In this document: positions 14,083 through 54,916 of the stretch, piece after piece | How the letters are laid out: each line of letters begins with the position of its first letter | How positions within the stretch are numbered: position 1 is the stretch's first letter | Source: Streptomyces marianii | GTDB lineage: Bacteria > Actinomycetota > Actinomycetes > Streptomycetales > Streptomycetaceae | Length of the DNA stretch: 64,000 nucleotides | Direction of reading: 5' to 3' | Assembly (NCBI RefSeq): GCF_005795905.1 | Contig: NZ_VAWE01000001.1 | Coordinates: forward strand, 7,691,501-7,755,500 | The notes under the pieces: generated by a model | Databases searched by the model: none | What the model saw: only the letters and a program-made list of their open reading frames with translations | What the model was told of the DNA's origin: nothing | Translations under genes and position numbers: made by a program

Positions 14083-14164
14083 GGGTCTGCTCCCAAGCGT
14101 CCGCGGCGCCCCGTGCCCCGGATTCCCGGCGTCACGTCGGGCCGAGCGAAGGAGTCGATCCACC

Positions 14165-25140: not shown

Positions 25141-25340
25141 CCCGTGCGGACGCGGCACCACGGCACCGGGGACCAGGCCGGAAGGGGAGATTCCGGGTCG
25201 ATGGCGCGGACCACCGGGGCGGTGGGATCGAGCGCGCCGCACCGTGCCGGACGGCCGGGCCGATCGCCCACCGCCGGGCCCGCCCCCTGCTCCTTCTGCT
25301 CCTTCGCGCGTTCCTCCGCACCGCCGCCGGCACTTCCGGC

Positions 25341-27788: not shown

Positions 27789-27918
27789 CGTCTGTTCCGC
27801 CTCCTCGCGCGGGCAGCCGCCGAGAGCCGTCCTCCCTCCATGCTGTCGCGCCCGGGACCCTCCGGGCGAGTCAGGACGGAGCGTGGTCCGTGCCGCGGCG
27901 CTCTGGTGTGCGTGGACC

Positions 27919-29994
27919 CTACCGGGCCGCGCCGTGCTGGATCGCCTGTTCCGACCAGATGGTCTTGCCGTCTCCGGTGGTCCTGGTGCCCCATCGGTCA
28001 CTGAGCTGCATGACGATGAACAGTCCACGGCCTCCTTCGTCCGTTGCGGTGGCATGGCGCATGTGCGGCGAGGTACTGCTGGCGTCCGAGACCTCGCAGA
28101 TCAGGGTGCGGTCGAGGATCACCCGCAGCTCGATCGGCCCCTGCCCGTAGCGGATCGCGTTGGTCACCAGCTCGCTGACGATCAGTTCGGTGGTGAAGAC
28201 GGCGTCCGGCATGTCCCACGCCTGGAGCTGGTGCTCGATCAGCCGGCGGGCCGTGGCCACGACCGAGCCGTCCCGGGGCAGGGTCCAGCTGGTGACGCGG
28301 TCCGCGCGCAGGGCGCGGGTACGGGCGAGCAGCAGCACCGCGTCGTCCTGGGGGCGGCGGGGCAGGAGCTCGTAGACCGCGGAGTCGCAGAGCCGCCCGA
28401 GGGACGCCTCGGGTTGGGCGAGGATCTGGTGGAGCCGGGCACGGGCCTTCCCGGCGTCCTGGCCGGGGGTGCTGACCAGGCCGTTCGTGTAGAGCGCCAG
28501 CAGGGTGGACTCCGGGAGGGTGACGGTGGCGGACGCGTAACCGGTGCCTCCCGCGCCCAGCGGGGGACCGTCCGGTACGTCGAACTCCAGCGCCGAGCCG
28601 TCGGGCCCCAGCACCAGCGGGAGCGGATGGCCGGCCCGGGCGGTGGCGCAGACCCGGGACACCGGGTCGTAGACCACGCACACGCAGGTGGCGAGGTGGT
28701 CCGGGGGCGCGTCGTCGCCGTGCCCGACCGGTGAGCGTGTCCGGCTGAGGAAGGCGGCCGTCTCGTCGAGCCGGTCGAGCAGTTCACCGGGCTCCAGGTC
28801 CTGCAGGGCGAGCGTGCGCAGGGCCGTTCGCAGCTGGCCCATGGTGGCGGCGGCCTCGATGCCGTGCCCGGCGACGTCACCCACGACCAGGGCGGCCCTG
28901 GCACCGGACAGCGGGATGACGTCGTACCAGTCACCTCCCGCGCTCTCGGGGAGATAGGTGTACGCGGTGTCGACCGCGGTGAGTTCGGGGGGCCGGCCCG
29001 GCATCAGCCCCTGCTGCAGCGTTGTCGCCACGGTGCGCTCACGGGCGAAACTGCAGGCGTTGTCGAGGTGCAGTGCGGTCTTGGCCACCAGTTCCGTCGA
29101 GAGGGCGAGATCCGCGTCGTCGAACAGCTCGGGGCGTTCGAAACGGTAGAGGGCGGCCACCCCCAGCACCGTCTCCCGCAGCGTCAGCGGCACCACCATC
29201 AGGGAGTGGACGCCCGCGGACACGATGGGTTCGCCGCGTTCGGGGTCCGCGTCCAGCCAGGCGTCGTTCGCGTCGACGTCGGTGACGAGCCGCGGTGTGA
29301 GGTCGTTGAGGACCTGGGAGTAAGGGGTGTGGGCGCCGAAGGTGTTGAGTTCGCCCTTGCGCGGCCCCCGCTCACGGCCGAGGACGGACCTGAACGCGAC
29401 CCGCCGCAACGGCGTGTCCGCCGGTACGGGGCCGGGGCGCAGCGGGCGCCCCCGCAAGGCGTCGTCGAGCAGGTCCACCGCCGCCGCGTCGGCGAGCCGG
29501 GGCAGGAGGACCTCCACGAGCTCCTCCGCCGTCCGGTACGCGTCGAGGCTCGTGCCGATGGACTGCCGGGCCTGGTGGAGCAGGTCCAGCCGGCCGAGCG
29601 CCGCCTCGCGTTCCGTGACGTCGTCGGCGATGACGGCCAGGCCGAGCACCTCCCCGTCGGGCCCCTCCAGCCGGAAGAGCGACAGCGAGACGGTCATGTC
29701 CCGTTCGGGATCGGACAGCGGCCTGCCCGTGATCAGGCGGTCGTGGACCACCGTGCCGGTGCGGAGCACGCCCTCCGCCAGGGCGACGACGGGGTCACCG
29801 CTGAAGCCCTCGGTGAGTTCGGCGACGGTCTTGCCCAGCACCTCCCCGGGAGGGATGCCGCGCACCCCGGGCGCCGCGCGGTTGAACCGGATGACCCGCA
29901 GCTCGTCGTCACACAGGAAGAGGCCGTGCGGTGCCTGAGTGAACAGGGCGTCGAGGATGGCCGAGTCCCGCCGCCGTGCGTCGTCTCCGTCCAC
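27919..29994 (-). CDS. PP2C (SpoIIE-type) phosphatase, PAS-GAF-PP2C-HATPase
   Basis: A 691-residue protein: an N-terminal PAS (ILDALFTQAPHGLFLCDDEL), GAF, the PP2C domain (GGDWYDVIPLSGARAALVVG; GHGIEAAATMGQLR) and a C-terminal anti-sigma-like ATPase (VSELVTNAIRYGQGP). The ATPase resembles that of the paralogue at 22468 more than that of 25341 (both keep CEVSDxSST and TATDEGGRGLF). The GTG at 29994 is preferred because the PAS domain starts soon after; an in-frame start at 30087 gives an Arg-rich extension that looks non-coding. The gap to the next paralogue is 130 bp. Confidence 0.84.
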   Translation of the reverse strand: MDGDDARRRDSAILDALFTQAPHGLFLCDDELRVIRFNRAAPGVRGIPPGEVLGKTVAELTEGFSGDPVVALAEGVLRTGTVVHDRLITGRPLSDPERDMTVSLSLFRLEGPDGEVLGLAVIADDVTEREAALGRLDLLHQARQSIGTSLDAYRTAEELVEVLLPRLADAAAVDLLDDALRGRPLRPGPVPADTPLRRVAFRSVLGRERGPRKGELNTFGAHTPYSQVLNDLTPRLVTDVDANDAWLDADPERGEPIVSAGVHSLMVVPLTLRETVLGVAALYRFERPELFDDADLALSTELVAKTALHLDNACSFARERTVATTLQQGLMPGRPPELTAVDTAYTYLPESAGGDWYDVIPLSGARAALVVGDVAGHGIEAAATMGQLRTALRTLALQDLEPGELLDRLDETAAFLSRTRSPVGHGDDAPPDHLATCVCVVYDPVSRVCATARAGHPLPLVLGPDGSALEFDVPDGPPLGAGGTGYASATVTLPESTLLALYTNGLVSTPGQDAGKARARLHQILAQPEASLGRLCDSAVYELLPRRPQDDAVLLLARTRALRADRVTSWTLPRDGSVVATARRLIEHQLQAWDMPDAVFTTELIVSELVTNAIRYGQGPIELRVILDRTLICEVSDASSTSPHMRHATATDEGGRGLFIVMQLSDRWGTRTTGDGKTIWSEQAIQHGAAR

Positions 29995-30303
29995 AGTTCC
30001 ACGATGGCCTTCGGCGTGCCGGGGGCAACTCGGCGCAGCCCGGCGGCACGGGGTCCGGGCTCCGCGGTGACGCCGCCTGCTGAACACGCTCCGGAGCCCT
30101 CGTACGTCCGGCCTCCCCCACGGGCAGCCCCGGCCGTCCTGGTGTCACGGCCGTACCTCTGTGGCGGGCGGCCCCTGCCCGCTCGGCCGGTGCCTCCTCG
30201 GACGGATCCGCCGGGCCCTCACCTGAGCGGCCCTTCACGGCTCGCGCACCCGCGGGCCCCGGGTTCTGCTGTTGTCAGCCTGACCACCAGCGGAGGAGTA
30301 CGC
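29995..30303. other. Divergent spacer, no gene seen
   Basis: About 309 bp between the divergent phosphatase and membrane-protein genes. It must hold both promoters. Apart from a strong GGAGGAG ribosome-binding site at its right end, I see no repeat, operator or small gene that I can support. Confidence 0.5.
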
Positions 30304-31719: not shown

Positions 31720-33441
31720 ATGGCCAGGGCGAACGACGAGATCGAGGCGATCCTCCAGGAGTACGCCGACCTCATCGCCATCACCGGCGGCGACGCCTTC
31801 CGGGCCCGTTCGTACGAGAAGGCCGCCCGCGCGATCGGCGGCTACCCGGCCGACGTGACCACCCTCGACCCCAAGGGGCTGCGCGAGATTCCCCACGTCG
31901 GCAAGTCCATCGCCGACAAGATCGTGGAGTATCTGACGTCCGGGCGGATCAGCGCGGTGGAGGAACGGCGGCAGTCCATTCCCGCCGGGGTGCGGGAGCT
32001 CATCGCCATCCCCATGCTCGGGCCGAAGAAGGCGCTGCTCCTGTACGAGGAGCTGGGCATCTCCTCCGTGGACCAACTGCTCGACGCGGTCCACGGGGAG
32101 CGGCTGCGCGATCTGAGGGGCTTCGGCGAGAAGACGGAGGCGAACATCCTCCACGGCATCGCGCTCATGCAGAAGGCCGGCACCCGGATCCTGCTCAACG
32201 CCGCCATGGACGCGGCCGAGCGGATCGTCGCCGAACTGTCGGGTGTGGAGGGCTGCGAGAGGTGCGCCTACGCCGGATCGCTGCGCCGGATGCGCGAGAC
32301 CATCGGCGACATCGACGTCCTCGTCGCCGCGGACGCCTCGGCTCCCTTCATGGACGCACTCGCCGCACTCCCGAACACGGCCGAGGTGATCGCCCACGGT
32401 GCCAAGAAGACGTCCATCCGCACGACCAAGGGGCTCCAGGTCGATCTGAGGGTGCTGCCGCCCGACTCCTGGGGCGCGGGACTGCAGTACTTCACCGGGG
32501 CCAAGGCGCACAACATCCGCACCCGCGAGATCGCGGTGCGCCAGGGGCTCAAGCTGTCCGAGTACGGGCTCTTCGACGCCGAGAGCGGCGAGAGGATCGT
32601 CTCCTCGACCGAGGAGGAGATCTACGAACGCCTGGGCCTGCCCTGGATCCCCCCGACCCTGCGCGAGGACCGGGGCGAGATCGAGGCCGCACTCCGCGGT
32701 GAACTGCCCGTGCTGGTCACGGAGGAGGACATCCGCGGTGATCTGCACACCCACACCGATCTCACCGACGGTCTGGCCCCGCTGGAGGAGATGGTCGCCG
32801 CGGCCGCGGCGCGCGGATACTCCTACTACGCGGTGACCGACCACGCCCCGGACCTCGCCATGCAGCGCATGACGAAGGAGAAGACGCTCGCCCAGCGGGA
32901 ACGGGTCCGTGAACTCGACCGCAAGCACAAGGGCATGCGACTGCTGCACGGCACCGAGCTCAACATCGGTCCCGAAGGGGACGTGGACTGGCCCGACGAC
33001 TTCCTCGCGGGCTTCGACATCTGCCTGGCCTCGATCCACTCCCATTTCAACCAGAGCCGGGACGCCCTCACCCGCCGCCTCGTCCGGGCCTGCGAGAACC
33101 CGTACATCTCCGTCATCGGCCACCCCACGACCCGCAGGATCGGCAAACGGCCCCCCGTCGACGCCGACTTCGACGCCGTCTTCGCGGCCTGCGCCCGCAC
33201 GGGCACGGCACTGGAGATCAACGCCCACCCCGAGCGGCTCGACCTCGGCGACGAGGACATCCTGCGCGCCAAGCGCCACGGCGTGCGCTTCGCGATCGAC
33301 TCGGACGCGCACTCCACCACCCATCTGCCCTACATGCGGTACGGGGTGGCGACGGCCCAGCGCGGCTGGCTCTCCAAGGACGACGTCGTCAACACCTGGC
33401 CGCTGACGAAGCTCAGGCGCTTCCTGCGGCCCTCGGTCTGA
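31720..33441 (+). CDS. polX: Family X DNA polymerase with PHP exonuclease domain
   Basis: A 573-residue protein with the standard bacterial PolX order. The 8-kDa helix-hairpin-helix domain comes first (YEKAARAIGGYPADVTTLD; IPHVGKSIADKIVEYL). The nucleotidyltransferase palm follows, with the metal pair in IGDIDVLV near residue 200 and a third Asp in LQVDLRV. The C-terminal PHP phosphoesterase (DLHTHTDLTDGLAPLEEM; YAVTDHAPDL; INAHPERLDLG; DSDAHSTTHL) gives 3'-5' exonuclease activity. It fills short gaps in base-excision repair. All catalytic motifs look intact. Confidence 0.93.
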   Translation: MARANDEIEAILQEYADLIAITGGDAFRARSYEKAARAIGGYPADVTTLDPKGLREIPHVGKSIADKIVEYLTSGRISAVEERRQSIPAGVRELIAIPMLGPKKALLLYEELGISSVDQLLDAVHGERLRDLRGFGEKTEANILHGIALMQKAGTRILLNAAMDAAERIVAELSGVEGCERCAYAGSLRRMRETIGDIDVLVAADASAPFMDALAALPNTAEVIAHGAKKTSIRTTKGLQVDLRVLPPDSWGAGLQYFTGAKAHNIRTREIAVRQGLKLSEYGLFDAESGERIVSSTEEEIYERLGLPWIPPTLREDRGEIEAALRGELPVLVTEEDIRGDLHTHTDLTDGLAPLEEMVAAAAARGYSYYAVTDHAPDLAMQRMTKEKTLAQRERVRELDRKHKGMRLLHGTELNIGPEGDVDWPDDFLAGFDICLASIHSHFNQSRDALTRRLVRACENPYISVIGHPTTRRIGKRPPVDADFDAVFAACARTGTALEINAHPERLDLGDEDILRAKRHGVRFAIDSDAHSTTHLPYMRYGVATAQRGWLSKDDVVNTWPLTKLRRFLRPSV

Positions 33442-33492: not shown

Positions 33493-34287
33493 TCAGCACG
33501 GGCGGCGCCATGCGTCCAGCTCCAGCCGCTTGCGCATGGAGGACAGTCCCAGCCGGCGGGACTCCGCGCAGAAGTCCCGGTTGGGCAGCGCGTACTCGAC
33601 ATGGAAGACGGCCTTCCCCGCCGCGACGAACGGGGTGAGCTTCGCGCACTCGCCGTACTGCGCGCACTCCTCGTTGACCGCGAAGTCGAAGTCCTCGACC
33701 AGCTCGGCCACTTGGGGCAGGTCGTTCTTCAACCCGACGGACAGCCCGCGTTCATGGGCGATACGGGCGATCATGCGGTTGTAGGCGAGCTGGTGGGCGG
33801 CGGTCAGGGGGAAGCCGGTGTCGTTCAGATGGGCGTCCAGCAGATCGGGTTCGACCGCGTCGAAGCCCTTCTCCCGGCACATGTCGAAGCGCTTCTCCAT
33901 GAGGGGGCCGAGCACGTCCAGCCGGCGGATGTCGAGCCACCGCTCGCCGTCCCAGCCGTTCGGCCGGCCGCGTACGGACACCGGGAAGTCCGCCTGGTCG
34001 GGACGGAAACGCTCCCAGGCACCGGCGTTGATGTAGCAGATGACCCGGCGTCCGTCCCGGTGCAGCCGTGCGACGTCGGCGGCGCTGTTCTCGAAGCCGT
34101 CGATGTCGTACACGGGCACGTCCGCCGCCGACGGGTCCGCGCGGCCGTCGAGCTGCCACTGCCACGCCGTGCCGGGCCGCGGCTGCCAGCGGACCCCGTC
34201 CGTATCCGGTGGGGCGCCGCCGGAGCACCCCGCCACCAGCAGCACGGCGAAGAGCAGGCACAGGCCGGGGAGTCGACGGCGGTTCAC
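33493..34287 (-). CDS. GH114-family lipoprotein, endo-alpha-1,4-polygalactosaminidase-like
   Basis: A 264-residue lipoprotein (lipobox VAGC, Cys21) with the full GH114 pattern: VICYINAGAWERFRPDQADFP, ERWLDIRRLDVLGPLMEKR, GFDAVEPDLLDAH (probable catalytic Asp158), VGLKNDLPQV and VNEECAQYGEC. The family, typified by Ega3 of Aspergillus and Pseudomonas polygalactosaminidase, cuts alpha-1,4-galactosamine chains. The GTG at 34287 overlaps the stop of the spherulin-4 gene and follows GGGAGG. It is the last gene of a minus-strand exopolysaccharide-like operon, where it would trim or release the polymer at the cell surface. Confidence 0.88.
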   Translation of the reverse strand: MNRRRLPGLCLLFAVLLVAGCSGGAPPDTDGVRWQPRPGTAWQWQLDGRADPSAADVPVYDIDGFENSAADVARLHRDGRRVICYINAGAWERFRPDQADFPVSVRGRPNGWDGERWLDIRRLDVLGPLMEKRFDMCREKGFDAVEPDLLDAHLNDTGFPLTAAHQLAYNRMIARIAHERGLSVGLKNDLPQVAELVEDFDFAVNEECAQYGECAKLTPFVAAGKAVFHVEYALPNRDFCAESRRLGLSSMRKRLELDAWRRPC

Positions 34288-34946
34288 GGAGCCTCCCGGT
34301 ACAGGGCGGGGGGCGGTGCGCCCCAGGGGTTGGGCAGGGAGCCGGTGACCGCGCAGTACACCGCGGCCCCGCGCTCGCCCGCCGCCCGGGCCGCGACGTC
34401 CGCCAGTGCCGTGGGCACCTCGTACACCAGGTGGCAGAACCGCTCGGGCGGATGCCGGGCAGTCCAGCGGGGTCGGGAGAAGGTGGAGAGATAGACCGGC
34501 CAGGGGCCCTCGAACGTCACCAGCAGATCGGCGATCCGGGTGTAGCCCGGCGCCGGGTGCACCCCGTGGTTGAGGACGACCGTGCGGCAGCCCCGCTGGC
34601 GTGCGGCGCGGACGAGACGGCGGCAGGCGGGCAGGGCGGACCGGTCGGCGGGCACCTGGTCGAAGAAGCAGCCGTCGACGTCGTACCACTCGCGATGGCG
34701 GTCCAGATCACCGGTCACCGCCGTTTCCGGGCGCACCCCGTAGTCGAGGTCGACATAGCCGAGGACGCGCGTGCCCGCTTCCCGCAGGGCGCGGGCGGCG
34801 GAGACGAACGCGGGATCGGGCGCCGACCCGGCGCCGTCGGCCGGGTTCAGCACCACCCCGTGGACCCGGTCCCCGGCGGCCGCGACCAGCCGCCAGGCTT
34901 CCGGGTCCTCCGCGGGATGCACATAGAGCGGGACCAGCAGCGTCAT
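34284..34946 (-). CDS. Spherulin-4 (Sph3 / GH135-like) hydrolase
   Basis: A 220-residue TIM-barrel protein of the spherulin-4 family: LVPLYVHPAEDPEAW, VVLNPADGAGSAPDP, VLGYVDLDYGVR, WYDVDGCFFDQVP, TFEGPW and FCHLVYEVP. The fungal member Sph3 is an endo-alpha-1,4-N-acetylgalactosaminidase needed for galactosaminogalactan. Asp96 and Glu146 align by eye with its catalytic acids; Gln97 stands where I recall a Glu in fungal enzymes. No signal peptide is visible, so it may act in the cytosol or the start may be missed. ATGA and GTGA overlaps couple it to both neighbours. Confidence 0.88.
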   Translation of the reverse strand: MTLLVPLYVHPAEDPEAWRLVAAAGDRVHGVVLNPADGAGSAPDPAFVSAARALREAGTRVLGYVDLDYGVRPETAVTGDLDRHREWYDVDGCFFDQVPADRSALPACRRLVRAARQRGCRTVVLNHGVHPAPGYTRIADLLVTFEGPWPVYLSTFSRPRWTARHPPERFCHLVYEVPTALADVAARAAGERGAAVYCAVTGSLPNPWGAPPPALYREAP

Positions 34947-35857
34947 GCCACCGGGTCCGCTTCCCCGTCGGCGCCGAGCGACGCCCACAGCGCGCTGAGG
35001 GAGTCGGTCAGGGTGAACCGCGGCTCCCAGCCGAGGGCGTCCCGCGCCGCCGTGATGTCCGAGCACTGCCAGGTCACGCCGGCGGAGCGCGCCGACCCGA
35101 TGCCGGCCTCGTCGACACGGCCCCCGAACCCGGCGACGGCCACCAGCCCCTGCACCAGGTCCCGGATCGGAACGGCGCGGCCGCCGCCGATGTTGAGGAT
35201 GCGCGGCAGCGGCCCGGAGGCGGTCGCCGCCAGCACCACCGCTCTGGCCAGGTCCCGCGTGTCGACGAAGTCGCGATGCGCGGACAGGTCACCGAACCGC
35301 ACGACCGCGTCGTGGTCCCCGCCCGCCCGGCGCAGCCGGAGGGCGGTGCCGCCCGGCAGGCTCATCGGAGCGGCGCCCGGTCCGACCGGGTTGCCCACGC
35401 GCAGCACGACCGCGTCGAGGCCCGACGATGCGACGGCCACCGTCCCGGCCAGTTTGGTGGCGCCGTACGAGCCCACGGGCCGCGTCGGTGCCTCCTCCGT
35501 GACCGGTACGCCGGGCTCGCCCGCCCCGTACTCGGCCGCCGAACCGAGGTGCACCAGCCGGGCGGTCGGCGCGGCCTTGCGCAGTGCCGCGCACAGCACG
35601 GCCGGGCCGCGCGCGTTGACCTCGGCATCGGTCACCGGGTCGGCGCCGAGCGACCCGGCGCAGTTGACCACCGCGTCGGGGGAGAGGTCCGCGAGGCTCT
35701 CGGCCAGCCGCCCCGTGTCGGCCGTGGCGAGGTCCACGCGGAGGTCGGCGTCCGGAGACCGGCCCCCGCCGAACAGCCGCGCGCCCCCCAGCGCGCTGAG
35801 CTGTTCGGCGACGTGGCGGCCCAGGTACCCGGTGTGGCCCAGGACGAGGATGCGCAT
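34943..35857 (-). CDS. NAD-dependent sugar epimerase/dehydratase (extended SDR)
   Basis: A 304-residue extended SDR. The dinucleotide motif is LGHTGYLGRHVAEQL, the active-site Tyr/Lys are in SYGATK, and HLGSAAEYG carries the upstream Ser. It would interconvert a nucleotide sugar; UDP-GlcNAc/UDP-GalNAc 4-epimerisation would fit the cluster, parallel to Uge3 of the fungal cluster, but substrate residues cannot be read. It is coupled by ATGA to the spherulin-4 gene and lies 7 bp from the nucleotidyltransferase. Confidence 0.85.
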   Translation of the reverse strand: MRILVLGHTGYLGRHVAEQLSALGGARLFGGGRSPDADLRVDLATADTGRLAESLADLSPDAVVNCAGSLGADPVTDAEVNARGPAVLCAALRKAAPTARLVHLGSAAEYGAGEPGVPVTEEAPTRPVGSYGATKLAGTVAVASSGLDAVVLRVGNPVGPGAAPMSLPGGTALRLRRAGGDHDAVVRFGDLSAHRDFVDTRDLARAVVLAATASGPLPRILNIGGGRAVPIRDLVQGLVAVAGFGGRVDEAGIGSARSAGVTWQCSDITAARDALGWEPRFTLTDSLSALWASLGADGEADPVA

Positions 35858-35864
35858 GGGGTGT

Positions 35865-36578
35865 TCAGGCTCCCTTGAGCAGCAGTGACTGGTGGGTGGT
35901 GAACTCGGCGTTGGCCCGGTCGTAGTCGTCCGGCCGGCCGATGTCGAGCCAGTAGCCGTCGAACTCGTAGGCCCCCGGCGGGTTCCCGGCCTTCAGCAGG
36001 TCCAGGACGAGTTCGTCGAAGCCGAGCGGCAGCCCGGCGGTGTATCCGTCGAGCGTGTCACGGGACAGCCCGTACACGCCCATGGAGACGCGGTAGTCCA
36101 TGGACGGTTTCTCGGCGAAGCCGACCACCCTCCCGGCGTCCGTGGTGAGCACCCCGAAGTCGATGTGCACCTTGCGGGCGTACGTGGCGATGGTCAGCGC
36201 CGACCCGCTCGTGCGGTGCCGGCCCAGGACCTCGGCGAAGTCGAGGTCGGTGAGGATGTCCCCGTTCATGACGAGGAACGACTCCGGCAGCCGGTCGCGC
36301 ATCGTCAGCAGCGGGCCCATGGTGCCCAGCGGGTTCTCCTCGGTCGCGTAGTCGATGCTCAGCCCCCATCGGGTACCGCTGCCGACGTAGGCGCGGATGA
36401 TGTGGCCGAGATGGCCGACGGCGATGGTGCAGCTCGTGAAGCCGCTCGCCGCCAGCTGACGCAGTACGATCTCCAGGATCGCGTGCCGGTCGCCGATCGG
36501 GACGAGCGGTTTGGGCAGTGCGGTGGTGTACGGGCGCAGCCGGATGCCCTTGCCTCCGGCGAGAATCACTGCGTGCAC
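35865..36578 (-). CDS. Sugar-phosphate nucleotidyltransferase
   Basis: A 237-residue RmlA/GlmU-type enzyme: VILAGGKGIRLRPYTTALPK (nucleotide loop), KPLVPIG, FLVMNGDILTDLDF (catalytic metal Asp) and GFAEKP. It makes an NDP-sugar from a sugar-1-phosphate and an NTP, supplying the two SDR enzymes that flank it. The GTG at 36578 follows AGGGGG; further upstream codons look non-coding. It lies 41 bp from the dehydratase gene. Confidence 0.88.
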   Translation of the reverse strand: MHAVILAGGKGIRLRPYTTALPKPLVPIGDRHAILEIVLRQLAASGFTSCTIAVGHLGHIIRAYVGSGTRWGLSIDYATEENPLGTMGPLLTMRDRLPESFLVMNGDILTDLDFAEVLGRHRTSGSALTIATYARKVHIDFGVLTTDAGRVVGFAEKPSMDYRVSMGVYGLSRDTLDGYTAGLPLGFDELVLDLLKAGNPPGAYEFDGYWLDIGRPDDYDRANAEFTTHQSLLLKGA

Positions 36579-36619
36579 GGGTAGCCCCCTGTGAGTACGG
36601 TGGTCGGTGGTCCGCCGGG

Positions 36620-37621
36620 TCAGATGTTGTAGATGCCGGTCTTGTAGCGGGAGAGGTTGGCGGGGTCGCGGAAGAACTCCACCGTCCGTGCCAGTCCCTG
36701 CTCCAGGTCGAGGGCGGGAGCCCACCCGGTCGCCTCCCGCAGCCGGGTCGCGTCCGCGACCAGCCGCATCACCTCGGAGTTCGCGGGCCGGATGCGCTGC
36801 TCGTCCTCCCGGACGTCGAGTTCGGTGTCCATCACCTTGCCGACGAGGCGCACCAGGTCGCCGACCGAGATCTCGCCGCCGGTACCGGCGTTGAAGGTCC
36901 GGCCCACGACGGCGTCGGCCGGTGCGGTGCCCACGGCGAGGAACGCCGCGGCCGTGTCCGTGGCGTAGGTGAAGTCGCGTGTGGGCCGGAGGTCGCCGAG
37001 AGTGATCGTACGCTCCCCGGCGGCGACCTGCCCGATGACGGTCGGGATGACGGCCCGCATCGACTGGCGGGGGCCGAAGGTGTTGAAGGGCCGCAGGGTG
37101 ACCACCGGTGTGCCGAAACTGGCGTGGTAGCTGTCGGCCAGCCGGTCCCCGCCGGCCTTCGAAGCCGCGTACGGGGACTGGGTGTTGATCGGGTGGTCCT
37201 CGGTGATCGGCACGGTCTGCGCGGTCCCGTACGTCTCGCTGGTGGAGGTGTGCACCAGCCGCGGGGTCTGAAGGGCCCGCACGGCCTCCAGCACGTTGAG
37301 CGTGCCCGTGACGTTGGTGTCCACATAGCTGTGGGGGGCGCGGTAGGAGTAGGGAATCGCGATCAGCGCCGCCAAGTGGTAGACGGCATCGGCCCCTTCG
37401 GCGAGCCCGCGGACCGAGCCGGGGTCACGGACGTCACCGAGCACGATCTCGACCTGGTCGAGCACGTCCTGCGGCAGTGTCTCCAGCCAGCCGAAGGAGG
37501 AGAAGGAGTTGTACTGCGCCATCGCACGGACACGGTGTCCCGAGGCGACGAGGGCCTCGGTCAGATGGGAGCCGATGAAGCCCTCGGCTCCGGTGACGGC
37601 GGCGAGCGGTGCGGATGTCAA
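36620..37621 (-). CDS. NDP-sugar 4,6-dehydratase (LegB-like SDR)
   Basis: A 333-residue extended SDR. VTGAEGFIGSHLTEAL is the NAD site, TSTSETYGTAQ and SPYAASKAGGDRL carry the Ser/Thr and YxxxK, and RPFNTFGPRQS is typical of GDP-mannose/UDP-GlcNAc dehydratases. The YNSFSSFGWLE segment resembles LegB-type UDP-GlcNAc 4,6-dehydratases. It should form a 4-keto-6-deoxy sugar nucleotide, so the polymer may contain a deoxy amino sugar. The start is TTG 37621, 7 nt after AAGGA; a weak start may limit its level. Confidence 0.83.
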   Translation of the reverse strand: MTSAPLAAVTGAEGFIGSHLTEALVASGHRVRAMAQYNSFSSFGWLETLPQDVLDQVEIVLGDVRDPGSVRGLAEGADAVYHLAALIAIPYSYRAPHSYVDTNVTGTLNVLEAVRALQTPRLVHTSTSETYGTAQTVPITEDHPINTQSPYAASKAGGDRLADSYHASFGTPVVTLRPFNTFGPRQSMRAVIPTVIGQVAAGERTITLGDLRPTRDFTYATDTAAAFLAVGTAPADAVVGRTFNAGTGGEISVGDLVRLVGKVMDTELDVREDEQRIRPANSEVMRLVADATRLREATGWAPALDLEQGLARTVEFFRDPANLSRYKTGIYNI

Positions 37622-37749
37622 CTGTCGTTCCTTTCAAGGAGGTTCGCTGCAAGGCGCGATGGTGTGCGGGTGGTGGTGTGCGAGCGGTGGACGGAAGCGG
37701 GCCGGAGCCGGGGACCCGGAACCCGGGGGCCTGGCCGGGCGGTTGCCGC

Positions 37750-37785
37750 GAGCGGCACGAGGGGTACGAGCGGCACGAGCGGTGG
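37750..37785. repeat. Four tandem 9-bp repeats in the exopolysaccharide operon spacer
   Basis: Four copies of GAGCGGCAC-like units (the second GAGGGGTAC, the last GAGCGGTGG) just before the end of the membrane-protein gene, in the 173-bp gap to the dehydratase gene. Such repeats vary by slippage. No function is evident. Confidence 0.6.
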
Positions 37786-37794
37786 ACGGCGGGT

Positions 37795-39180
37795 TCAGGA
37801 GTGCGCAGTGGGCCTGCCCAGACACCACAGGACGGCGGTGACGAGGACCCCGGCGGCGGTGCCACAGCCGATCAGCAGCGGAGCGGCGCTCAGTGGGCCG
37901 CCGAGCAGGGTCACCGCGGCCACCCCGGCGGCCGCGGTGAGCGATACCACGGCCGGGAGCCAGGCCAGTCCGAACGCCTGAAGCAGCAGCGCGGCCCACA
38001 GCAGTGCGGCGAGGGTCAGCAGGGGCGCCGGTTCGGCGCCGGTGAACAGCGCCGCCGGGACGAGCGGCAGCAGATAGCCGCCCATACACAGCGCGAGCGT
38101 CCGGGCGGACCGCAGCCGGAACCCGGCCTCGTCCGCCGAGGCCCGCAGCGCTGCCACCGACAGCCCCCGGTAGCGGTACAGCAGCCACTCCGCGGGCCCC
38201 ATGCTGACGGTGAGCACGACCACGGCCCAGGGCTGACGCTGCCCCAGGGACATCACCAGCGCGCCCGCGGCCAGACCGAACAGCCCGTACGGCAACGAGC
38301 CGAGCAGCCGCGGCGTGGTGGCGCCACCGGACGCCTTCTCCGCACCGAGCATCCCCCGGATCTCGCGGCCGGCGACGGCGACGGCCAGCACCACCGTCAG
38401 CACCGGCAGCGCGATCCGAGGCAGCGGGCCCGGGTCCCACCACGGCAGCACCGCCGCGCCGGCGGCCAGGGGGGCGAGCGTGCCGAGCAGCAGCCGTTCC
38501 CGTCCACGGACCAGGAGCACTGCGGCCGCCGCGAGGTACAGCGACTGCCCTGCGCCGAACAGCGCGGCGGGCCCCGGCCCCGCCACCGCGAGGGCGGCCG
38601 CCGTGGCGAGCAGAGCACCCGAGGGCGCGCCCACGAGCAGCGTCCGGCCCGCCTGCCGCGGCCCCGCCGTCAGCCGCAGATACGCCCGGTGGCTGAGCGC
38701 CTGGCCCCAGGCCCACGACAGCAGGCCCGCGACCACGAGCGCGTACACCCCCCGGGGCGAGTGCCACAGGCCGGCGGTCAGCAGGTAGGCCAGGCCAGGC
38801 AGGGCGAACAGCGCCCCGCGCAGGGCACACCGGACGTGGTCGGGCGCCCAGGGATCCGGCCCGCGCGGGGGCTCGGGGAAACTGCGCGGCACCCGCCCGT
38901 ACAGATCGGCGGCGAGCGAGAACAGATCGGGACGCCCGTAGCGCTCCTGGATCTGCTCGCCCGTCAGGCCCTCGGACTCCAGCAGGGCCGCGACCTCGTA
39001 CGCGTGCACCGCGGGTCCGATGCGATCGGCGAGCTCGGCGGCGAGGACGTCCACCGGGTCGTCCGGAGTCCGTCTGCGCCGGGGCAGGCGCAGTGACAGC
39101 GTGGCGTCCGGCGCGGCGAGACGCAGGGCCAGCGTGTCGCCCTGCCCGCCGTCGGGTTCGAGAGCCATGGGCCCGCTCAT
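37795..39180 (-). CDS. Polytopic membrane protein, possible exopolysaccharide exporter
   Basis: A 461-residue protein. About 110 soluble N-terminal residues (LAAELADRIGPAVHAYEVAALLESEG; QIQERYGRPDLFSLAADLYG) are followed by roughly ten to twelve hydrophobic helices to the end. It is coupled to the PelF-like glycosyltransferase by an ATGA overlap. In Pel loci the gene beside pelF is pelG, a polytopic flippase-like protein of similar length, and in the fungal cluster the transferase and membrane part are fused. I infer an analogous partner but recognise no family motif, so the function is unproven. Confidence 0.75.
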   Translation of the reverse strand: MSGPMALEPDGGQGDTLALRLAAPDATLSLRLPRRRRTPDDPVDVLAAELADRIGPAVHAYEVAALLESEGLTGEQIQERYGRPDLFSLAADLYGRVPRSFPEPPRGPDPWAPDHVRCALRGALFALPGLAYLLTAGLWHSPRGVYALVVAGLLSWAWGQALSHRAYLRLTAGPRQAGRTLLVGAPSGALLATAAALAVAGPGPAALFGAGQSLYLAAAAVLLVRGRERLLLGTLAPLAAGAAVLPWWDPGPLPRIALPVLTVVLAVAVAGREIRGMLGAEKASGGATTPRLLGSLPYGLFGLAAGALVMSLGQRQPWAVVVLTVSMGPAEWLLYRYRGLSVAALRASADEAGFRLRSARTLALCMGGYLLPLVPAALFTGAEPAPLLTLAALLWAALLLQAFGLAWLPAVVSLTAAAGVAAVTLLGGPLSAAPLLIGCGTAAGVLVTAVLWCLGRPTAHS

Positions 39181-40688
39181 CCGGCCACGCTCCCCAGGGG
39201 TGCCTCGTCGCTGAGGGGGGTGCCCCAGGGGTCGGCCAGTCGCACCCCGCGGACGGACAGCTCCAGGTAGATGGCGCGGAAGGTGTCGATGGTCTGCCGG
39301 AGCGTGAACTGCTCGATCACCCGCAGCCTCGCGGCCTCGCCCATCGCCGCCCGGCGCGGGGGATCGGCCAGCAGCTCCAGCGCGGCCGCGGCCATGGCCC
39401 CGGGGTCGCGGGGCGGGACGACCAGCCCGGCGTCGCCGACCGCCTCCCGGACGCCGCCGACGTCGGTGGACACGGTTGCCCTGCCGCACGACATGGCCTC
39501 GATCAGGGTGAAGGGGAATCCCTCGCTGATGCTGGACAGCATCACCACGTTGCCAGCGGCGTACGCGTCCTTGATGTCGTCGACCCGGCCCTCGAAGGTG
39601 ACGGCGTCGCCGTGGCCGAGTGAGGCCGCGAGTGCCTCGCACCGCTCCCGGTACGCCTCGCCACCCCGCGGTGTGCCGCCGAACAGCCGCAGGGTGGCGG
39701 CGGGAAGCGCCCCGCGGACCTCGGCGAACGCCTGGATCAGGGTCTCCAGGTCCTTGATGGGGTCGACGCGCCCCGCCCAGCTGAGCGTCGGGCCCTGCGG
39801 TTCGGGGCCCGCGGGCGGGAAGGCGGAAGGGTCCACGCCGTTGTAGACGGTGCGGATGAGCCGGGGATCGGCGCCGCCCTGCTCCTCCCACAGCCGGTTG
39901 TAGCGGTTGCCGGGCGTGACGAGGGCGGCGCGACGGTAACTCTCCTCGGCCAGCAGCCGGAAGAAGCCGAGCAGCACCGCCTTGACGGGCCAGCGGTACG
40001 GGGCTGTCCGGTAGCCGAGATAGCGTTCGCGCAGATAGACCCCGTGTTCGGTGAGCAGCAGGGGGACGCCGTGGAGTTCGAGTGCGGCCAGCCCCGGGAG
40101 CACCGCCACGCCGCCGCTGACCGCGTGCGCCACTCCGCGCTCCGGCGGCCGCGCCGCGAGCGGCCGCAGGGCGTGCTCCAGCAGCGCGGTCGCGGTGACC
40201 GCGTCGTGGAGGCTGGGCCGCGCCTCCCGGACGACCAGGCCCCGGCGGTTCCACACCGCGGTCAGGACACGCAGCGCCCGGTCCCCGCGCAGCGCGGGAC
40301 CGAGCGCCCCGTCCCGGGCGGCGTGGGCCAGTTCGTACAGGGCGGGGGAGAACCCCTCCTCGGCGGAGGGGTCCACCAACGCCGTGAGGAAGCGTTCGTA
40401 CGCCGCCATCAGCCGGCGTTCACGCCGGCCGCGCGGCGGTGAACCGGGGGGTGCGGGACCCCACATGGGCACCGTGACCGGCTCGGCCACGTGCGGGGGC
40501 AGTTCCCAGGCGACGGACTCCCGTCCGGTGCCGGTCACCGCGATGATGTCGAAGTCGATGTCGGGCATGCCGCCGACGAGCTGGTCGCACCAGACGCTCA
40601 CCCCGCCGTGACTGTGCGGGTAGGTGCCTTCGGTGAGGAGGGTGACGCGTGCCGCGTCTCGGCGCGGCGCACGAGGCGATACGTGCAT
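39177..40688 (-). CDS. PelF-like GT4 glycosyltransferase
   Basis: A 503-residue GT-B transferase. The opening TLLTEGTYPHSHGGVSVWCDQL is the PelF signature. LLTEHGVYLRERYL follows, then VYNGVDPSAFPP, SWAGRVDPIKDLETLIQAF and the donor-binding SSISEGFPFTLIEAMSCGRA with the GT4 E-x7-E region. PelF polymerises UDP-GalNAc/GlcNAc in the cytosol. The start is ATG 40688 with GGAG 7 nt upstream. A strongly folded spacer separates it from the deacetylase upstream, and it overlaps the membrane-protein gene downstream. Confidence 0.9.
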   Translation of the reverse strand: MHVSPRAPRRDAARVTLLTEGTYPHSHGGVSVWCDQLVGGMPDIDFDIIAVTGTGRESVAWELPPHVAEPVTVPMWGPAPPGSPPRGRRERRLMAAYERFLTALVDPSAEEGFSPALYELAHAARDGALGPALRGDRALRVLTAVWNRRGLVVREARPSLHDAVTATALLEHALRPLAARPPERGVAHAVSGGVAVLPGLAALELHGVPLLLTEHGVYLRERYLGYRTAPYRWPVKAVLLGFFRLLAEESYRRAALVTPGNRYNRLWEEQGGADPRLIRTVYNGVDPSAFPPAGPEPQGPTLSWAGRVDPIKDLETLIQAFAEVRGALPAATLRLFGGTPRGGEAYRERCEALAASLGHGDAVTFEGRVDDIKDAYAAGNVVMLSSISEGFPFTLIEAMSCGRATVSTDVGGVREAVGDAGLVVPPRDPGAMAAAALELLADPPRRAAMGEAARLRVIEQFTLRQTIDTFRAIYLELSVRGVRLADPWGTPLSDEAPLGSVAG

Positions 40689-40720
40689 GGATGGGCTCCA
40701 CGGCAGGAGGGCGGGGCGGG

Positions 40721-40787
40721 GCGGGTTCCGGGCGTTCCCGGCGGGAACGGCGCACGCCCTGCACGGCGTGCGGCGTCCGGAACCCGC
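40721..40787 (-). promoter_or_regulatory. Three-way-junction-like structured element before the PelF gene
   Basis: An 11-bp outer stem (GCGGGTTCCGG with its complement at 40777-40787) encloses two hairpins: CGTTCCC/GGGAACG with a 3-nt loop (40733-40749) and CGCACGCC/GGCGTGCG with a 6-nt loop (40751-40772). It is intercistronic, starting 38 nt after the deacetylase stop and ending 33 nt before the PelF start. It could be an attenuator, an mRNA stabiliser or a partial terminator tuning downstream expression. Confidence 0.6.
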
Positions 40788-40824
40788 GTCCTCGCGGTGA
40801 GCTGGTGCGGCCGGTGCGTTCGGG

Positions 40825-42983
40825 TCAGCGCTCGGCGCCCGGGACCACGGGGCGAGCGGCGCCCGCGGGCACCGGACCGTCGGGAGCGGGCGCCGTGGCC
40901 CGGCCGGGGCCGGCGGCCGGGCTCCCGGACTCGGGGGCCGACGGCAGCGAGAGGGTCACGCCCTCCTGGCCGGGAGCGAGCGGCACGCTGCCGGAGACGG
41001 TGCCCGCGTACGGCTCCCCGAAGGCCGCCGGTCCGGCCGGGAGTACCCGGGTGGTCCCCGCCGGCATGGTGGCGCGGACGGCCGTACCCGCCGGAGCCGT
41101 GACGGTGACCGTGTCACCGATCCGGTACGCGGTGACCTGACCGGCCTTCACCGCGCCGTCCCACGAGGCCCGTTCGCGCAGTTCCGCCCCGACGTCCTTC
41201 ATCCTGGGGTTCACCAGCGGGGTGTCGTCCGCGTACAGCGCCGCGTACTGGTCGAGGATCCGGTCCAGGACCGGGTAGGCGATGCGGTCCTCGGCCAGGT
41301 TCGACTGGTGGATGAAGTGAGGCCGGGGATCGTTGGCCAGGACGTGGCCCATGGCGATCCGTGCCTCGAGCGGCACGATGTGCTCCGAGTAGCCCGTAGC
41401 GGGGTCGAGCGGCGCGTCGAGACAGGTGGTCGTGGCCGAGTCCTCGCAGATGCCGCTGCCGCCCTGGGCCCTGCTGGTGTAGATCCAGTTGTACTCGTCG
41501 ACCTGCTCCGCGGCCCGGCCCACGTTGTAGAACACGTTCATCGGGTGGCGCGAGACGGTGAGCGCGGGGCCGACCTGCCGCTGCACCGGATCACGGGAGT
41601 TGTCCGAGGCGAGCCAGGCGATGCCGTTGTCCGCGAGCGCCGGGGCGAGGTGGGGGTTGTCCTCGGGCTGCTGCGGCAGCAGCTTCAGGCCGGAGTGCTC
41701 CCCGGTGACCAACTCACCGCTCTCCAGAGGCAGTCCGGCCTGCTCGGCCCACTGGCGGTTGTCGGCGATCTGCCGCGATATCTCGTCCCGCCCGACGTAG
41801 CGGACGCTGCCGTCCGGATTCGTGGCGCACTTCCACGGAACGACACTCACGTCCTGCTCGCAGCCCAGGTACGGGTGGTCGTAGGTGTGGTTGATCCAGC
41901 GGAACGCCTCACGGTCCCCGGTGAGCCGGTCCGCCAGCGGATCCGCCCCGTCGTGCTCCTCCCGGTACTCGACGCTGCCGCCGCCGTTGTACGCGAGGTC
42001 GAGGGTGAAGTTCCGGGACCGCGACCACTCGACCGCGCGCCCGACGTCGTCGGGCGTCATCCGGATCGGGTTCGGCGTGCCCTGACCGGGCAGGCAGTCG
42101 ACGTCACCCGGTGTGCAGTTGAGCTCGGTGTCCCAGCGGTCGTCGGCGGCGAAGACGTCGTCGACGTGGACCGAGAACCAGTTGCGGGAGGTGCCCAGGC
42201 GCGTGCCCTGGGTCATCCAGTCGACGATCCCCCGGGCGAGCAGGCGGAACTGCTGCTGGTACTGGTTGGCCACGAAGGTGACCACCAGTTCGCGGCGGCC
42301 GTCGTGGCGGTACTCGCCGACGAGCGAGCCCCGGGCGGTTCCCCCGGGAGGGGCGCGTCGACGTAGGTGGTGAAGTCGGCGCCCACCCGCGGCCGGGAGA
42401 GGAAGCCCCAGCTCTCGTCCACCGCGGGGTCGTTGTCCTCGAAGGTGAAGGCGCCGTCGAGATAGCCGAAGGGCCCGGCCTTCCCGGCCGCGGTCACCTG
42501 TGCGGTGATGCCGTCCACGGGCCCCGCGTACCCGCCGTTCACGGGGTACTCCAGCCCCGCCTGCGGCCGGGCGTAGGTGTACGCGTCGACCTGCGGGATC
42601 GCGTAGGTCCGCTCGTAGGCCGCCAGGGCGGCCATCTCCTGCGAACCGGCCGGGAACGGTTGGTCGTTGGGCAGCACCACGGCCTGGTACCTGGCGCGGG
42701 GGCGGCCGTCGACCTCGTCCGCGAGGAAGGCGGCGTCGATGACGGGCCGGCTCTCGTCCGCGAGGTCGACCACGGTGTACGGGGTGCCCGTGCTGTCGAG
42801 TTCCGCGGCGATCGCGGCCGTTGCCGGCCCCCCGTCGGAGACCACCAGCACCCGGAGGTCGATCCTCGGCGCCGGTTCTGCCGCCTGCGCCGGCGCAGGC
42901 GGCAGTCCGCCGAGCGAGATGATGAGCGCTCCTGCGGCGAGCGCGGTCGTCCATATGGTCCGCCGGACGCGGATCCGCTTCAT
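40825..42983 (-). pseudogene. Secreted polysaccharide deacetylase, Agd3/PelA (CE18)-like, frameshifted
   Basis: About 719 codons in two frames. The N-terminal part from ATG 42983 has a Sec signal (MKRIRVRRTIWTTAL to AQAAEP) and a Rossmann-like domain (LRVLVVSDGGPATAAIAAEL; PQVDAYTYARPQAG). Near 42330 the frame breaks. The remainder continues to 40825 with SLVGEYRHDGRRELVV, the metal-site HVDDVFAADDRWD, NHTYDHPYLGC and HFIHQSNLAEDR, typical of NodB-like deacetylases of the CE18 group. One extra G in the GGGG run (42329-42332) would restore PPGGSLVGEY. It is either a sequencing slip or a recent inactivation. Active, it would partly deacetylate the exported galactosamine polymer. Confidence 0.82.
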
Positions 42984-43534: not shown

Positions 43535-44062
43535 TCAGGAGGCGGCGGGCTCCGCGGGGGCGCAGGCCACCCGGGTCTCCGGAGTGTTGTGGATGCCGTC
43601 CTTGGTGCGCTGCCCGTTGTCGTACTCGTAGTACAGGTAGGAGTAGAAGCCGATGGTTCCGTTGCAGCCGGAGTCGGCCGCGACCTGGTACGTCAGGGTG
43701 ACGGTCCGGGAGGTGCCGGGGGCCAGCGGGATCTCGTAGTTCACGCCGAGGGCGGTCGAGCCGGTACCCGAACAGACGGCGCCCTGGGCGGTGCACGAGA
43801 CGAAGTTGTACTTGAGGTCCTTGCGCTGGGTCGTCGCCCAGGTCGGCTGCACCGACTGGTACACGAACCAGATGTCCGTCGACTGGTTGTTGGTCAGGGT
43901 CATCGTCAGCGACACGGTGGAGCCCGGCGTGGTCTCCGGCTGGTCGACGGTGAAGGCCAGGTCCGGGGTGTCGGCCGCGGCGGGCTGCGCCGCGCCGAGG
44001 CAGACGAGGGCCGTGGCGAGAGCGGCCGACTGGCCGAGGCGTCTCAAGTGTGTGATGCGCAT
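43535..44062 (-). CDS. Small secreted protein, unknown function
   Basis: A 175-residue protein with a clear signal peptide ([19 protein letters not shown] to AAADTPDL). It then forms a beta-rich domain: [20 protein letters not shown] and [20 protein letters not shown] recall DUF11/CARDB-like Ig folds. Four Cys residues ([16 protein letters not shown]) may form two disulfides. I do not recognise a characterised family. It is transcribed towards the exopolysaccharide operon and divergent from gluABCD. Confidence 0.78.
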
Positions 44063-51255: not shown

Positions 51256-52170
51256 TCACTTGACCGAACCGGCCATCACTCCCTGGACGAAGTGCCGCTG
51301 GAAGGCGAAGAAGACCACCACGGGCACGACCAGCGACAGGAACGCGCCGGGCGCCAGCACGTCGATGTTGCTGCCGAACTGCCGTACCTGCGACTGGAGT
51401 TCCACCGTGAGAGGCTGCGAAGAACTGTCCGCGAAGAGCAGCGCCACGAGCATGTCGTTCCAGACCCACAGGAACTGGAAGATCGCCAGACTCGCGATGG
51501 CCGGACGCCCCACCGGCAGCACCAGCCGGGTGAAGATCCGCCACTCGCTGCCGCCGTCCATCCGCGCCGCCTCCAGCATCTCCCGCGGGATGTCCGCGAA
51601 GTAGTTCCGCAGCAGGAAGACGGCGAAGGGCAGCCCGTAGGCCACGTGGAACAGCACCACACCGGGAATCGTGCCGAACAGCCCCAGCTGACCGAAGAGT
51701 TTGGCGACCGGCAGCAGACCCACCTGGACCGGAACCACCAGCAGTGCCACCACGAGCAGGAAGATCCAGTCCCGGCCAGGGAACTCCAGCCAGGCGAAGG
51801 CGTATCCGGCGAGCGCAGCGAGCACGATGACCAGGGCGGTCGCCGGCACCGAGATCAGCACGGTGTTCCAGAACGCCTGGGTGATGCCCGCGTTCCCCAG
51901 CAGCGCCGTGTAGTTGTCGAAGGAGAGCTGCCCCGGGCTGGTCAGCGTGGTCCACCAGCCGCTGCTCGCGTTGTCCTGGGGCGTGCGCAGCGAGGACAGC
52001 AGCAGACCTGCGAGCGGGGTGATCCAGACCAGGCCGATCACCACCAGGAGGGCCTGGACCACGCCGTTGCCGAGCCAGCGGCCGAGCCGGCCGCCGGACT
52101 TCGCCCGTGCCGTCCCGCCGGTGGCGGCCGGCTCCTGCACGGCGGCGGGGCCGGTGGGGGTGGCGCTCAT
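51256..52170 (-). CDS. ABC sugar permease (MalG-type), alpha-glucoside importer
   Basis: A 304-residue permease with six helices. The periplasmic [14 protein letters not shown] precedes TM2, and the EAA loop is [21 protein letters not shown]. The C-terminus, [16 protein letters not shown], is typical of MalG proteins. It overlaps the preceding permease gene (ATGA) and is the last gene of the operon, followed by a strong terminator. Confidence 0.92.
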
Positions 52171-53537: not shown

Positions 53538-53543
53538 GGGATG

Positions 53544-54869: not shown

Positions 54870-54916
54870 GGCAGAACTTCCTTACCGGTCGGGAAACGGG
54901 CGGAGCGTCGCAGAGC

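What the first reader, a model, noticed from the sequence alone, without database searches (positions are those of the whole stretch)
33493..42983. Galactosaminogalactan/Pel-like exopolysaccharide cluster in an actinomycete
One strand carries a CE18/Agd3-like secreted deacetylase, a PelF-like GT4, a polytopic membrane protein, a LegB-like dehydratase, a nucleotidyltransferase, an SDR epimerase, a spherulin-4 (Sph3-like) protein and a GH114 (Ega3-like) lipoprotein. Fungal galactosaminogalactan clusters consist of Uge3, Sph3, Gtb3 (GT4 plus membrane part), Ega3 and Agd3, and bacterial Pel loci use PelF, PelG and the PelA hydrolase/deacetylase. Seven of eight proteins have a counterpart or an obvious precursor role. 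The extra 4,6-dehydratase suggests a different sugar composition. Known Streptomyces adhesive glycans (CslA/GlxA, MatAB) do not use these families.
Basis: partly seen in the sequence, partly recalled or inferred. Interest (0 to 1): 0.88.

Follow-up and report, generated by a model that had tools for sequence, protein, structure and literature searches.

The report
Streptomyces sticky amino-sugar polymer gene cluster
A soil Streptomyces carries a gene cluster, related to ones that fungi and other bacteria use to make a sticky positively charged sugar polymer, but with extra sugar-making genes that suggest the polymer is built from a different (6-deoxy) amino sugar.

Summary
The GT4 is a PelF (above curated cut-off). 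The deacetylase belongs with CE18/Agd3: an intact ortholog's predicted fold matches Agd3 and the catalytic motifs are kept. GH114 is close to Ega3. The membrane protein, unmatched by sequence, has a predicted MOP-like (MATE/Wzx/MurJ) fold. In this genome the CE18 gene carries a frameshift; near relatives are intact. The general idea is not new: Bamford et al. 2020 (PMC7229062) reported actinobacterial operons with CE18, a GT, a membrane protein, GH114 and spherulin-4. Added here: of 34 complete-enough loci in 61 Streptomyces genomes, 14 (type A, this one) carry a LegB-type 4,6-dehydratase, a nucleotidyltransferase and an SDR, and 20 (type B, the published kind) carry none of the three; no locus carries part. 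All 64 long named loci (best 80 of 480 kept) carry the trio. PelF splits the same way on one well-supported branch. GH114 has Leu in place of Asn beside its catalytic Asp in 62 of 62 readable distinct type A copies. Best reading: a GAG/Pel-type machine retuned to a 6-deoxy-hexosamine polymer, probably D-fucosamine. The sugar is inferred, not shown. New variant of a known kind.

The parts
42333..42983 (-). CE18/Agd3-like deacetylase, N-terminal piece (signal sequence + region corresponding to CBM87), ends at a frameshift
   Evidence: no Pfam match of its own; full-length relatives P0001-P0005
40825..42318 (-). CE18/Agd3-like deacetylase, catalytic and C-terminal piece, in a different frame from the N-terminal piece
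   Evidence: Agd3_CE 0.0042, below Pfam's cut-off, for the window piece, 9.3e-6 at best among 12 relatives; fold of intact orthologue P0001 matches Agd3 6nwz, E 7.2e-22; motifs HVDD, HTYDH, R, HQSN kept
39177..40688 (-). GT4 glycosyltransferase PelF (polymer synthase)
   Evidence: tree
37798..39180 (-). Membrane protein: N-terminal helical part + about 12 transmembrane helices, MOP-superfamily-like fold (PelG-like role)
   Evidence: no Pfam match
36620..37621 (-). LegB-type NDP-sugar 4,6-dehydratase (active site T-S-E...Yx3K)
35865..36578 (-). Sugar-1-phosphate nucleotidyltransferase
34943..35857 (-). SDR, likely NDP-4-keto-6-deoxysugar 4-reductase (or C4-epimerase)
34284..34946 (-). Spherulin-4 / GH135-like protein, no signal peptide; nucleophile Asp and acid/base Glu kept
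33493..34287 (-). GH114 lipoprotein (Ega3-like endo-galactosaminidase), GTG start at 34287, with the type A-specific Leu after the catalytic Asp
43535..44062 (-). Small secreted protein (weak DUF11 match), conserved neighbour upstream of CE18 in many type A clusters; membership of the cluster uncertain
   Evidence: weak match; 47 of 64 named loci of 20 kb or more; no match in the 20 type B loci

Best explanation
A GAG/Pel-type, synthase-dependent exopolysaccharide cluster with its own precursor cassette. Proposed steps: the nucleotidyltransferase makes an NDP-HexNAc (possibly GDP-GlcNAc, as in legionaminic acid pathways). LegB converts it to the NDP-4-keto-6-deoxy-HexNAc. The SDR reduces C4, giving NDP-6-deoxy-HexNAc, most likely D-FucNAc (6-deoxy-GalNAc). 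PelF polymerises it and the MOP-type membrane protein passes the chain across the membrane. The secreted CE18 enzyme partly de-N-acetylates it, making it cationic and adhesive. The GH114 lipoprotein cuts deacetylated stretches at the surface. The spherulin-4 protein acts inside the cell, perhaps trimming or assisting the synthase. Shown here: gene content, family membership, linkage, the two-type split, the GH114 substitution and the folds (predicted). Inferred: the sugar, the nucleotide, the linkage, the direction of transport and the function of every enzyme. In this strain the system may be crippled by the CE18 frameshift.
For: Family. CE18 fold. MOP-like fold. Of 34 genus-sample loci with PelF and membrane protein, 14 carry all three precursor genes, 20 none and none a part; 64 of 64 named loci of 20 kb or more carry all three. 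PelF rows of the two types are divided by one branch, SH-aLRT 99. The LegB active site is of the GDP-mannose-dehydratase kind in 86 of 86 loci (table in PMC8987622). In 2 of 3 LegB loci outside type A an NTase-like match lies just before LegB, and in L164 a LegC-family gene follows it; type A has an SDR instead. GH114 has Leu after the catalytic Asp in 62 of 62 readable distinct LegB-linked loci, Asn in 15 of 15 type B loci and in Ega3. CE18 has mostly Phe in type A and Tyr in type B (98/90% and 93/100%) at two positions that by spacing lie beside motifs CM3 and CM4.
Against: No chemistry. The SDR could be a C4-epimerase: a 41% identical SDR sits next to PelF in the type C locus with no LegB or NTase match in the stretch. 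LegB scores under its family cut-off. The types are defined by the trio, and the GH114 Leu and the PelF split each reflect a single evolutionary event, so these are correlations without replication. Asn at GH114 position 88 is not unique to type A. Other type-splitting positions (25 in PelF, more in CE18 and spherulin-4) have no clear link to the sugar. The CE18 gene is frameshifted in this genome.
Confidence: 0.55

Rival explanations
1. The backbone is an ordinary GalNAc/GalN polymer as in GAG and Pel, made from housekeeping UDP-GlcNAc/UDP-GalNAc. The LegB cassette supplies a minor sugar in it or a decoration.
For: The same machine without the cassette (type B) exists in 20 of 61 genomes. GH114 and CE18 are galactosamine-polymer families (PMC7229062, PMC12054363).
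Against: The cassette is never partial in the 34 genus-sample loci or the 64 long named loci, follows the synthase tree, and comes with changes beside catalytic residues of GH114 and CE18. No second glycosyltransferase was found among the eight ORFs.
Confidence: 0.25
2. The SDR is a UDP-GlcNAc C4-epimerase feeding PelF, as Uge3 does in fungi, and LegB plus the nucleotidyltransferase make a sugar used elsewhere.
For: An SDR relative sits with PelF but without LegB in the type C locus. A GalE model is its best NCBIfam match, far below cut-off.
Against: LegB, NTase and SDR are tightly packed: 41-nt and 7-nt gaps, then a 4-nt overlap into spherulin-4. The best solved relative of the SDR is a 4-reductase.
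Confidence: 0.12
3. The cluster is decayed and inactive in this strain because the deacetylase gene is broken.
For: Frameshift inside CE18.
Against: The other seven genes are open. The shift lies in a G+C-rich stretch and a 7-contig draft may hold an error. Relatives at 91-93% are full length.
Confidence: 0.2
4. The cluster degrades a foreign GAG-like polymer instead of making one.
For: It holds a deacetylase and hydrolases; an endogalactosaminidase was reported from S. griseus (cited in PMC7229062).
Against: PelF, a MOP-type membrane protein and NDP-sugar enzymes are anabolic. The eight ORFs hold no importer or sugar-catabolic gene.
Confidence: 0.03

Closest known systems
Actinobacterial agd3/CE18 operons (Bamford et al. 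2020, PMC7229062)
   Same: CE18, cytoplasmic GT, multi-span membrane protein, GH114 and sometimes spherulin-4
   Different: The section read names no dehydratase/nucleotidyltransferase/SDR cassette; its Fig. 8c could not be seen. Type B here is the published kind.
Fungal galactosaminogalactan cluster (Uge3, Gtb3, Sph3, Ega3, Agd3)
   Same: Agd3-like, Ega3-like and Sph3-family proteins
   Different: Synthase and membrane part are separate genes; the spherulin-4 protein is predicted cytosolic; a LegB-type cassette is present instead of a clear Uge3
Gram-positive pelDEA(DA)FG operon (Whitfield et al. 2020, PMC7112168, passages seen)
   Same: PelF; a 12-helix MOP-like membrane protein in the place of PelG; a deacetylase and a hydrolase
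   Different: No PelD or PelE among the eight ORFs; CE18 and GH114 in place of PelA domains
Legionaminic acid pathway start (PtmE-type nucleotidyltransferase, LegB, LegC; PtmE recalled)
   Same: Nucleotidyltransferase next to LegB
   Different: An SDR stands in the place of the LegC aminotransferase

Membership tests
CE18 (Agd3-like deacetylase) | Catalytic motifs CM1 (Asp-Asp), CM2 (HxxxH), CM3 (Arg), CM4 (His) | tested here: met
   HVDD, HTYDH, R of TVSRHP, HQSN in the window piece and its relatives against the description in PMC7229062; matched by motif order and spacing, not by a residue-level alignment to Agd3
CE18 (Agd3-like deacetylase) | Three-domain CBM87-CE-beta architecture | tested here: met
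   Model of intact orthologue P0001 (pLDDT 71.6) matches 6nwz, E 7.2e-22, TM 0.60/0.65, 763 alignment columns; CBM87 profile matched by 3 of 12 relatives
CE18 (Agd3-like deacetylase) | Pfam Agd3_CE above its cut-off (window piece) | tested here: not met
   16.6 bits against 27.6
CE18 (Agd3-like deacetylase) | Intact reading frame in this genome | tested here: not met
   Frameshift between 42333 and 42318
PelF | DUF3492 + GT4 domain, NCBIfam PelF above cut-off | tested here: met
   161.3 bits against cut-off 100
Pel operon | PelD and PelE present in the cluster | tested here: not met
   None named among the eight ORFs; the rest of the genome was not searched for them
PelG / MOP superfamily | About 12 helices with MOP fold | tested here: inconclusive
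GH114 | Family profile; catalytic Asp/Glu | tested here: met
   3.3e-83; VEPD and NEEC present
GH114 | Asn after the catalytic Asp, as in Ega3 | tested here: not met
   Leu in the window and in all readable type A copies. Not a formal family criterion.
GH135 / Sph3 | Spherulin-4 profile; nucleophile Asp and acid/base Glu | tested here: met
   1.5e-30; FFD and VTFE; catalytic pair per PMC12054363
GH135 / Sph3 | Exposed outside the cell (recalled for Sph3) | tested here: not met
   No signal peptide
LegB | TIGR04180 at or above cut-off | tested here: not met
   450.2 bits against 475; a LegB followed by a LegC-family gene in L164 scores 433
NDP-sugar 4,6-dehydratase | Acid/base residues of the [ST]SE kind with Yx3K | tested here: met
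   TSE...Yx3K in 86 of 86
Fungal GAG cluster | C4-epimerase Uge3 | tested here: inconclusive
   The SDR lacks dehydratase acid/base residues; reductase or epimerase

The most novel reading that the evidence does not exclude
Streptomyces evolved a second version of the Pel/GAG machine that polymerises a 6-deoxyhexosamine (poly-N-acetylfucosamine, partly deacetylated) from a GDP-linked donor, with synthase, deacetylase and hydrolase retuned to a sugar lacking the C6 hydroxyl. Some species carry both versions and so could make two chemically distinct cationic matrices.
Probability: 0.4. Interest if true: 0.72.

Novelty: new variant of a known kind. Interest (0 to 1): 0.52.

Why it matters
If true, a family of adhesive polymers known as galactosamine-based would have a member with different chemistry, made by a common soil genus. 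Two sister systems in one genus, differing by a three-gene cassette and a few active-site residues, give a clean way to learn how PelF, CE18 and GH114 choose their sugar. In the study read, the bacterial GH114 enzymes tried could not be made soluble and folded (PMC12054363), so knowing the right substrate could help.

Tried and rejected
Profile search of the PDB with CE18 alignment A1 found nothing, even at E 10; the fold search then found Agd3. Single-sequence PDB search with the CE18 piece found nothing at E 1. Asn at GH114 position 88 was dropped as a type A mark: many other GH114 proteins have Asn there. The spherulin-4 residue after the nucleophile is Gln or Arg here where Sph3 has Glu; I do not read this as loss of catalysis, because the pair named in PMC12054363 is an Asp plus a later Glu and both are kept in types A and B, as far as aligned. 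PelF differs between types at 25 positions; I could not tie these to nucleotide choice. The first GH114 count read the wrong column by one; one search replaced it. and the query used for GH114 began one codon before the GTG start; one search gave the start as 34287. One search failed on a script error; one search replaced it. Literature: searches listed, by title and abstract, no paper on this cassette or on a 6-deoxy Pel/GAG-type polymer. That library lacks most subscription journals; figures and supplements were not seen. What I saw of papers: PMC7229062 passages and one section; PMC12054363 passages, outline and two sections; PMC8987622, PMC7112168 and PMC7112194 passages only; all others search listings.
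Full report
What is there. The window is part of a 9.0 Mb genome in 7 contigs, by its nearest relatives a Streptomyces close to S. wuyuanensis: locus L084 of that species has PelF 97% and LegB 96% identical. On the minus strand, in order of transcription: CE18-like deacetylase (42983-40825, frameshifted), PelF (40688-39177), membrane protein (39180-37798), LegB-type dehydratase (37621-36620), nucleotidyltransferase (36578-35865), SDR (35857-34943), spherulin-4 (34946-34284), GH114 lipoprotein (34287-33493). Spacing: 136 nt after CE18, a 4-nt overlap from PelF to the membrane protein, 176 nt to LegB, then 41- and 7-nt gaps and a 4-nt overlap into spherulin-4, and a 4-nt overlap into GH114. This fits one or two co-transcribed units. 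Downstream is a convergent gene with DNA polymerase beta thumb and PHP domains (31720-33441). Upstream, beyond a small secreted protein, is a divergent ABC-transporter gene.

Frameshift. The first 651 bases of the CE18 gene and the rest are in different frames. P0001-P0005, 91-93% identical to the second piece, are full-length proteins of 719-723 aa. Whether it is a mutation or a draft error cannot be told here.

Already known. Bamford et al. 2020 (section read, passages) found agd3 homologues in 45 bacterial species. 30 of the 35 in their tree were in or near operons with carbohydrate-active enzymes; all operons had a cytoplasmic GT and a multi-span membrane protein, GH114 was highly consistent, and spherulin-4 genes occurred in some Actinobacteria operons. 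They also discussed galactosamine polymers and an endogalactosaminidase of Streptomyces.

Two types. In a sample of 61 Streptomyces genomes (own included), 34 match the CE18 piece. I fetched stretches of up to 20 kb round 37 of the matches plus the second own locus; three weak or partial matches were not fetched. Types are defined by the precursor trio. Type A (14 genomes, this cluster among them) carries LegB, NTase and SDR, spherulin-4 in 14 of 14 and GH114 in 12 of 14. Type B (20 genomes) carries CE18, PelF and the membrane protein, spherulin-4 in 18 of 20 and GH114 in 15 of 20, and none of the trio. No locus of the 34 carries part of it. Five genomes, this one included, have both types; the own type B cluster is in L006. 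Five loci were set aside: three on truncated contigs (L039, L060, L070) and two without PelF nearby (L066, L074); one genome had only a weak hit. A scan of named genomes gave 480 relatives, of which the best 80 were kept, so it is biased to type A. Of 64 loci of 20 kb or more, 64 carry all three precursor genes, 62 spherulin-4 and 54 GH114. Of the 16 shorter ones, 7 carry all three, one LegB only and 8 none. Five named loci repeat genomes of the first sample. A PelF tree of 37 rows separates 14 A from 20 B rows by one branch, SH-aLRT 99.

What the cassette should make. LegB has Thr-Ser-Glu before Yx3K in 86 of 86 loci, the GDP-mannose-dehydratase pattern in the table of PMC8987622, where retaining UDP-GlcNAc dehydratases have [ST]DE and GalE has neither acid nor base (passages). 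The same review names retaining UDP/GDP-GlcNAc dehydratases in QuiNAc, L-FucNAc and legionaminic acid pathways. Of three LegB loci outside type A (L164-L166), two have an NTase-like match just before LegB, and in L164 a LegC-family aminotransferase follows (379 bits, cut-off 420); L166 has neither seen (L165 was not profiled further). Type A has an SDR in the LegC place, so I infer reduction of the keto group instead of transamination. The best PDB relative of the SDR is a GDP-6-deoxy-lyxo-hexulose 4-reductase (79 bits), but an NAD-dependent epimerase/dehydratase-family protein is close (75 bits). The dedicated nucleotidyltransferase suggests a donor other than housekeeping UDP-GlcNAc. D-FucNAc is my choice because GH114, CE18 and PelF are galactosamine-polymer families; this is inference.

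Active-site signal. Across GH114 only two positions split A (67 loci) from B (15) at 90% or more in each. Positions count from a query string that begins one codon before the GTG. One is 88 (Asn/Ser), but Asn also occurs in many other GH114 proteins. The other is 150 (Leu/Asn), right after the catalytic Asp. Leu is in 62 of 63 distinct LegB-linked loci and the 63rd match does not reach it; Asn is in 15 of 15 type B loci. A class-wide search listed 69 GH114 matches, 33 of which, besides the two own, I read. Three LegB-linked copies have Leu. Of the 30 others, 26 have Asn, 2 lack the motif, 2 have Gln or Glu and none has Leu. Neighbourhoods were fetched for 17 of those 30, some on short contigs; none had a LegB match above 35% identity. 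One further type A locus, L215, has no GH114 match. Ega3 has Asn. CE18 has mostly Phe in A and Tyr in B at two positions (98/90% and 93/100%) which by spacing lie beside the CM3 and CM4 residues of Agd3; they are two of four such positions in the catalytic piece. A polar-to-hydrophobic change near the sugar fits a substrate without the C6 hydroxyl. In the trees type A is one group, so this is one event, not repeated evidence.

Spherulin-4. The pair named for Sph3-like enzymes is kept in types A and B in nearly every aligned copy printed (one search lists the commonest variants). The protein begins at the first strand of the barrel and its start overlaps the stop of the SDR gene, so no signal peptide fits. 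Upstream sequence was printed for 25 of 81 type A and all 18 type B copies and shows none. In type C the Glu is lost in 21 of 21 and the Asp in 5 of 21.

A third PelF locus. The own genome has another PelF at L007 with a membrane protein, an SDR and spherulin-4 and no CE18 or GH114 match in the stretch. By my reading, 54 of 61 genomes have a match of 60% identity or more to this PelF. In 20 loci fetched from 20 genomes, plus L007, the four genes keep their order and no LegB or NTase match was found in the stretch. The order PelF, membrane protein, SDR, spherulin-4 is shared by types A and C, so LegB and the nucleotidyltransferase look like insertions into an older order. This also keeps alive the rival that the SDR is an epimerase.

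Verdict. Certain: the observation. Very likely: a GAG/Pel-type polymer system of a published kind. New here: the A/B split, the all-or-none precursor cassette and the hydrolase change. Likely but unproven: a 6-deoxyhexosamine polymer.

Noticed in passing
L007 6710-11572 (own genome C1 about 2879700-2884570): A third PelF locus (PelF, membrane protein, SDR, spherulin-4), with a PelF match of 60% identity or more in 54 of 61 Streptomyces sampled; its spherulin-4 lacks the acid/base Glu in 21 of 21 copies read: possibly a core, uncharacterised polymer system with a non-catalytic spherulin-4.
   Followed up: partly
L006 9132-15300 (own genome C1 about 6355130-6361300): A second, type B CE18-PelF-membrane protein-GH114 cluster in the same genome, with CE18 in an open frame and no spherulin-4 match.
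   Followed up: partly
window 42318-42333: Frameshift inside the CE18 gene; the nearest relatives listed are full length.
   Followed up: partly
window 43535-44062: Small secreted protein (weak DUF11 match) upstream of CE18 in 47 of 64 named loci of 20 kb or more; no match in the 20 type B loci.
   Followed up: partly
window 22453-30087: Three SpoIIE-type phosphatase genes with GAF, PAS or Cache sensor domains lie close together.
   Followed up: no
window 18786-22067: GH38 alpha-mannosidase near a solute-binding protein gene (13997-15466), perhaps a sugar uptake locus.
   Followed up: no
window 52167-56660: Alpha-amylase-family gene (54990-56660) near a permease ORF that also matches a carboxypeptidase-regulatory-like domain (52167-53537).
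   Followed up: no
L181 (G254; also L213) and L192 (G153): GH114-family proteins that lack the catalytic PD motif, perhaps non-catalytic.
   Followed up: no
L206, L209: CE18-PelF-spherulin-4-GH114 loci in two other actinomycete families without a LegB-type cassette (L209 has an SDR about 30% identical next to PelF).
   Followed up: partly
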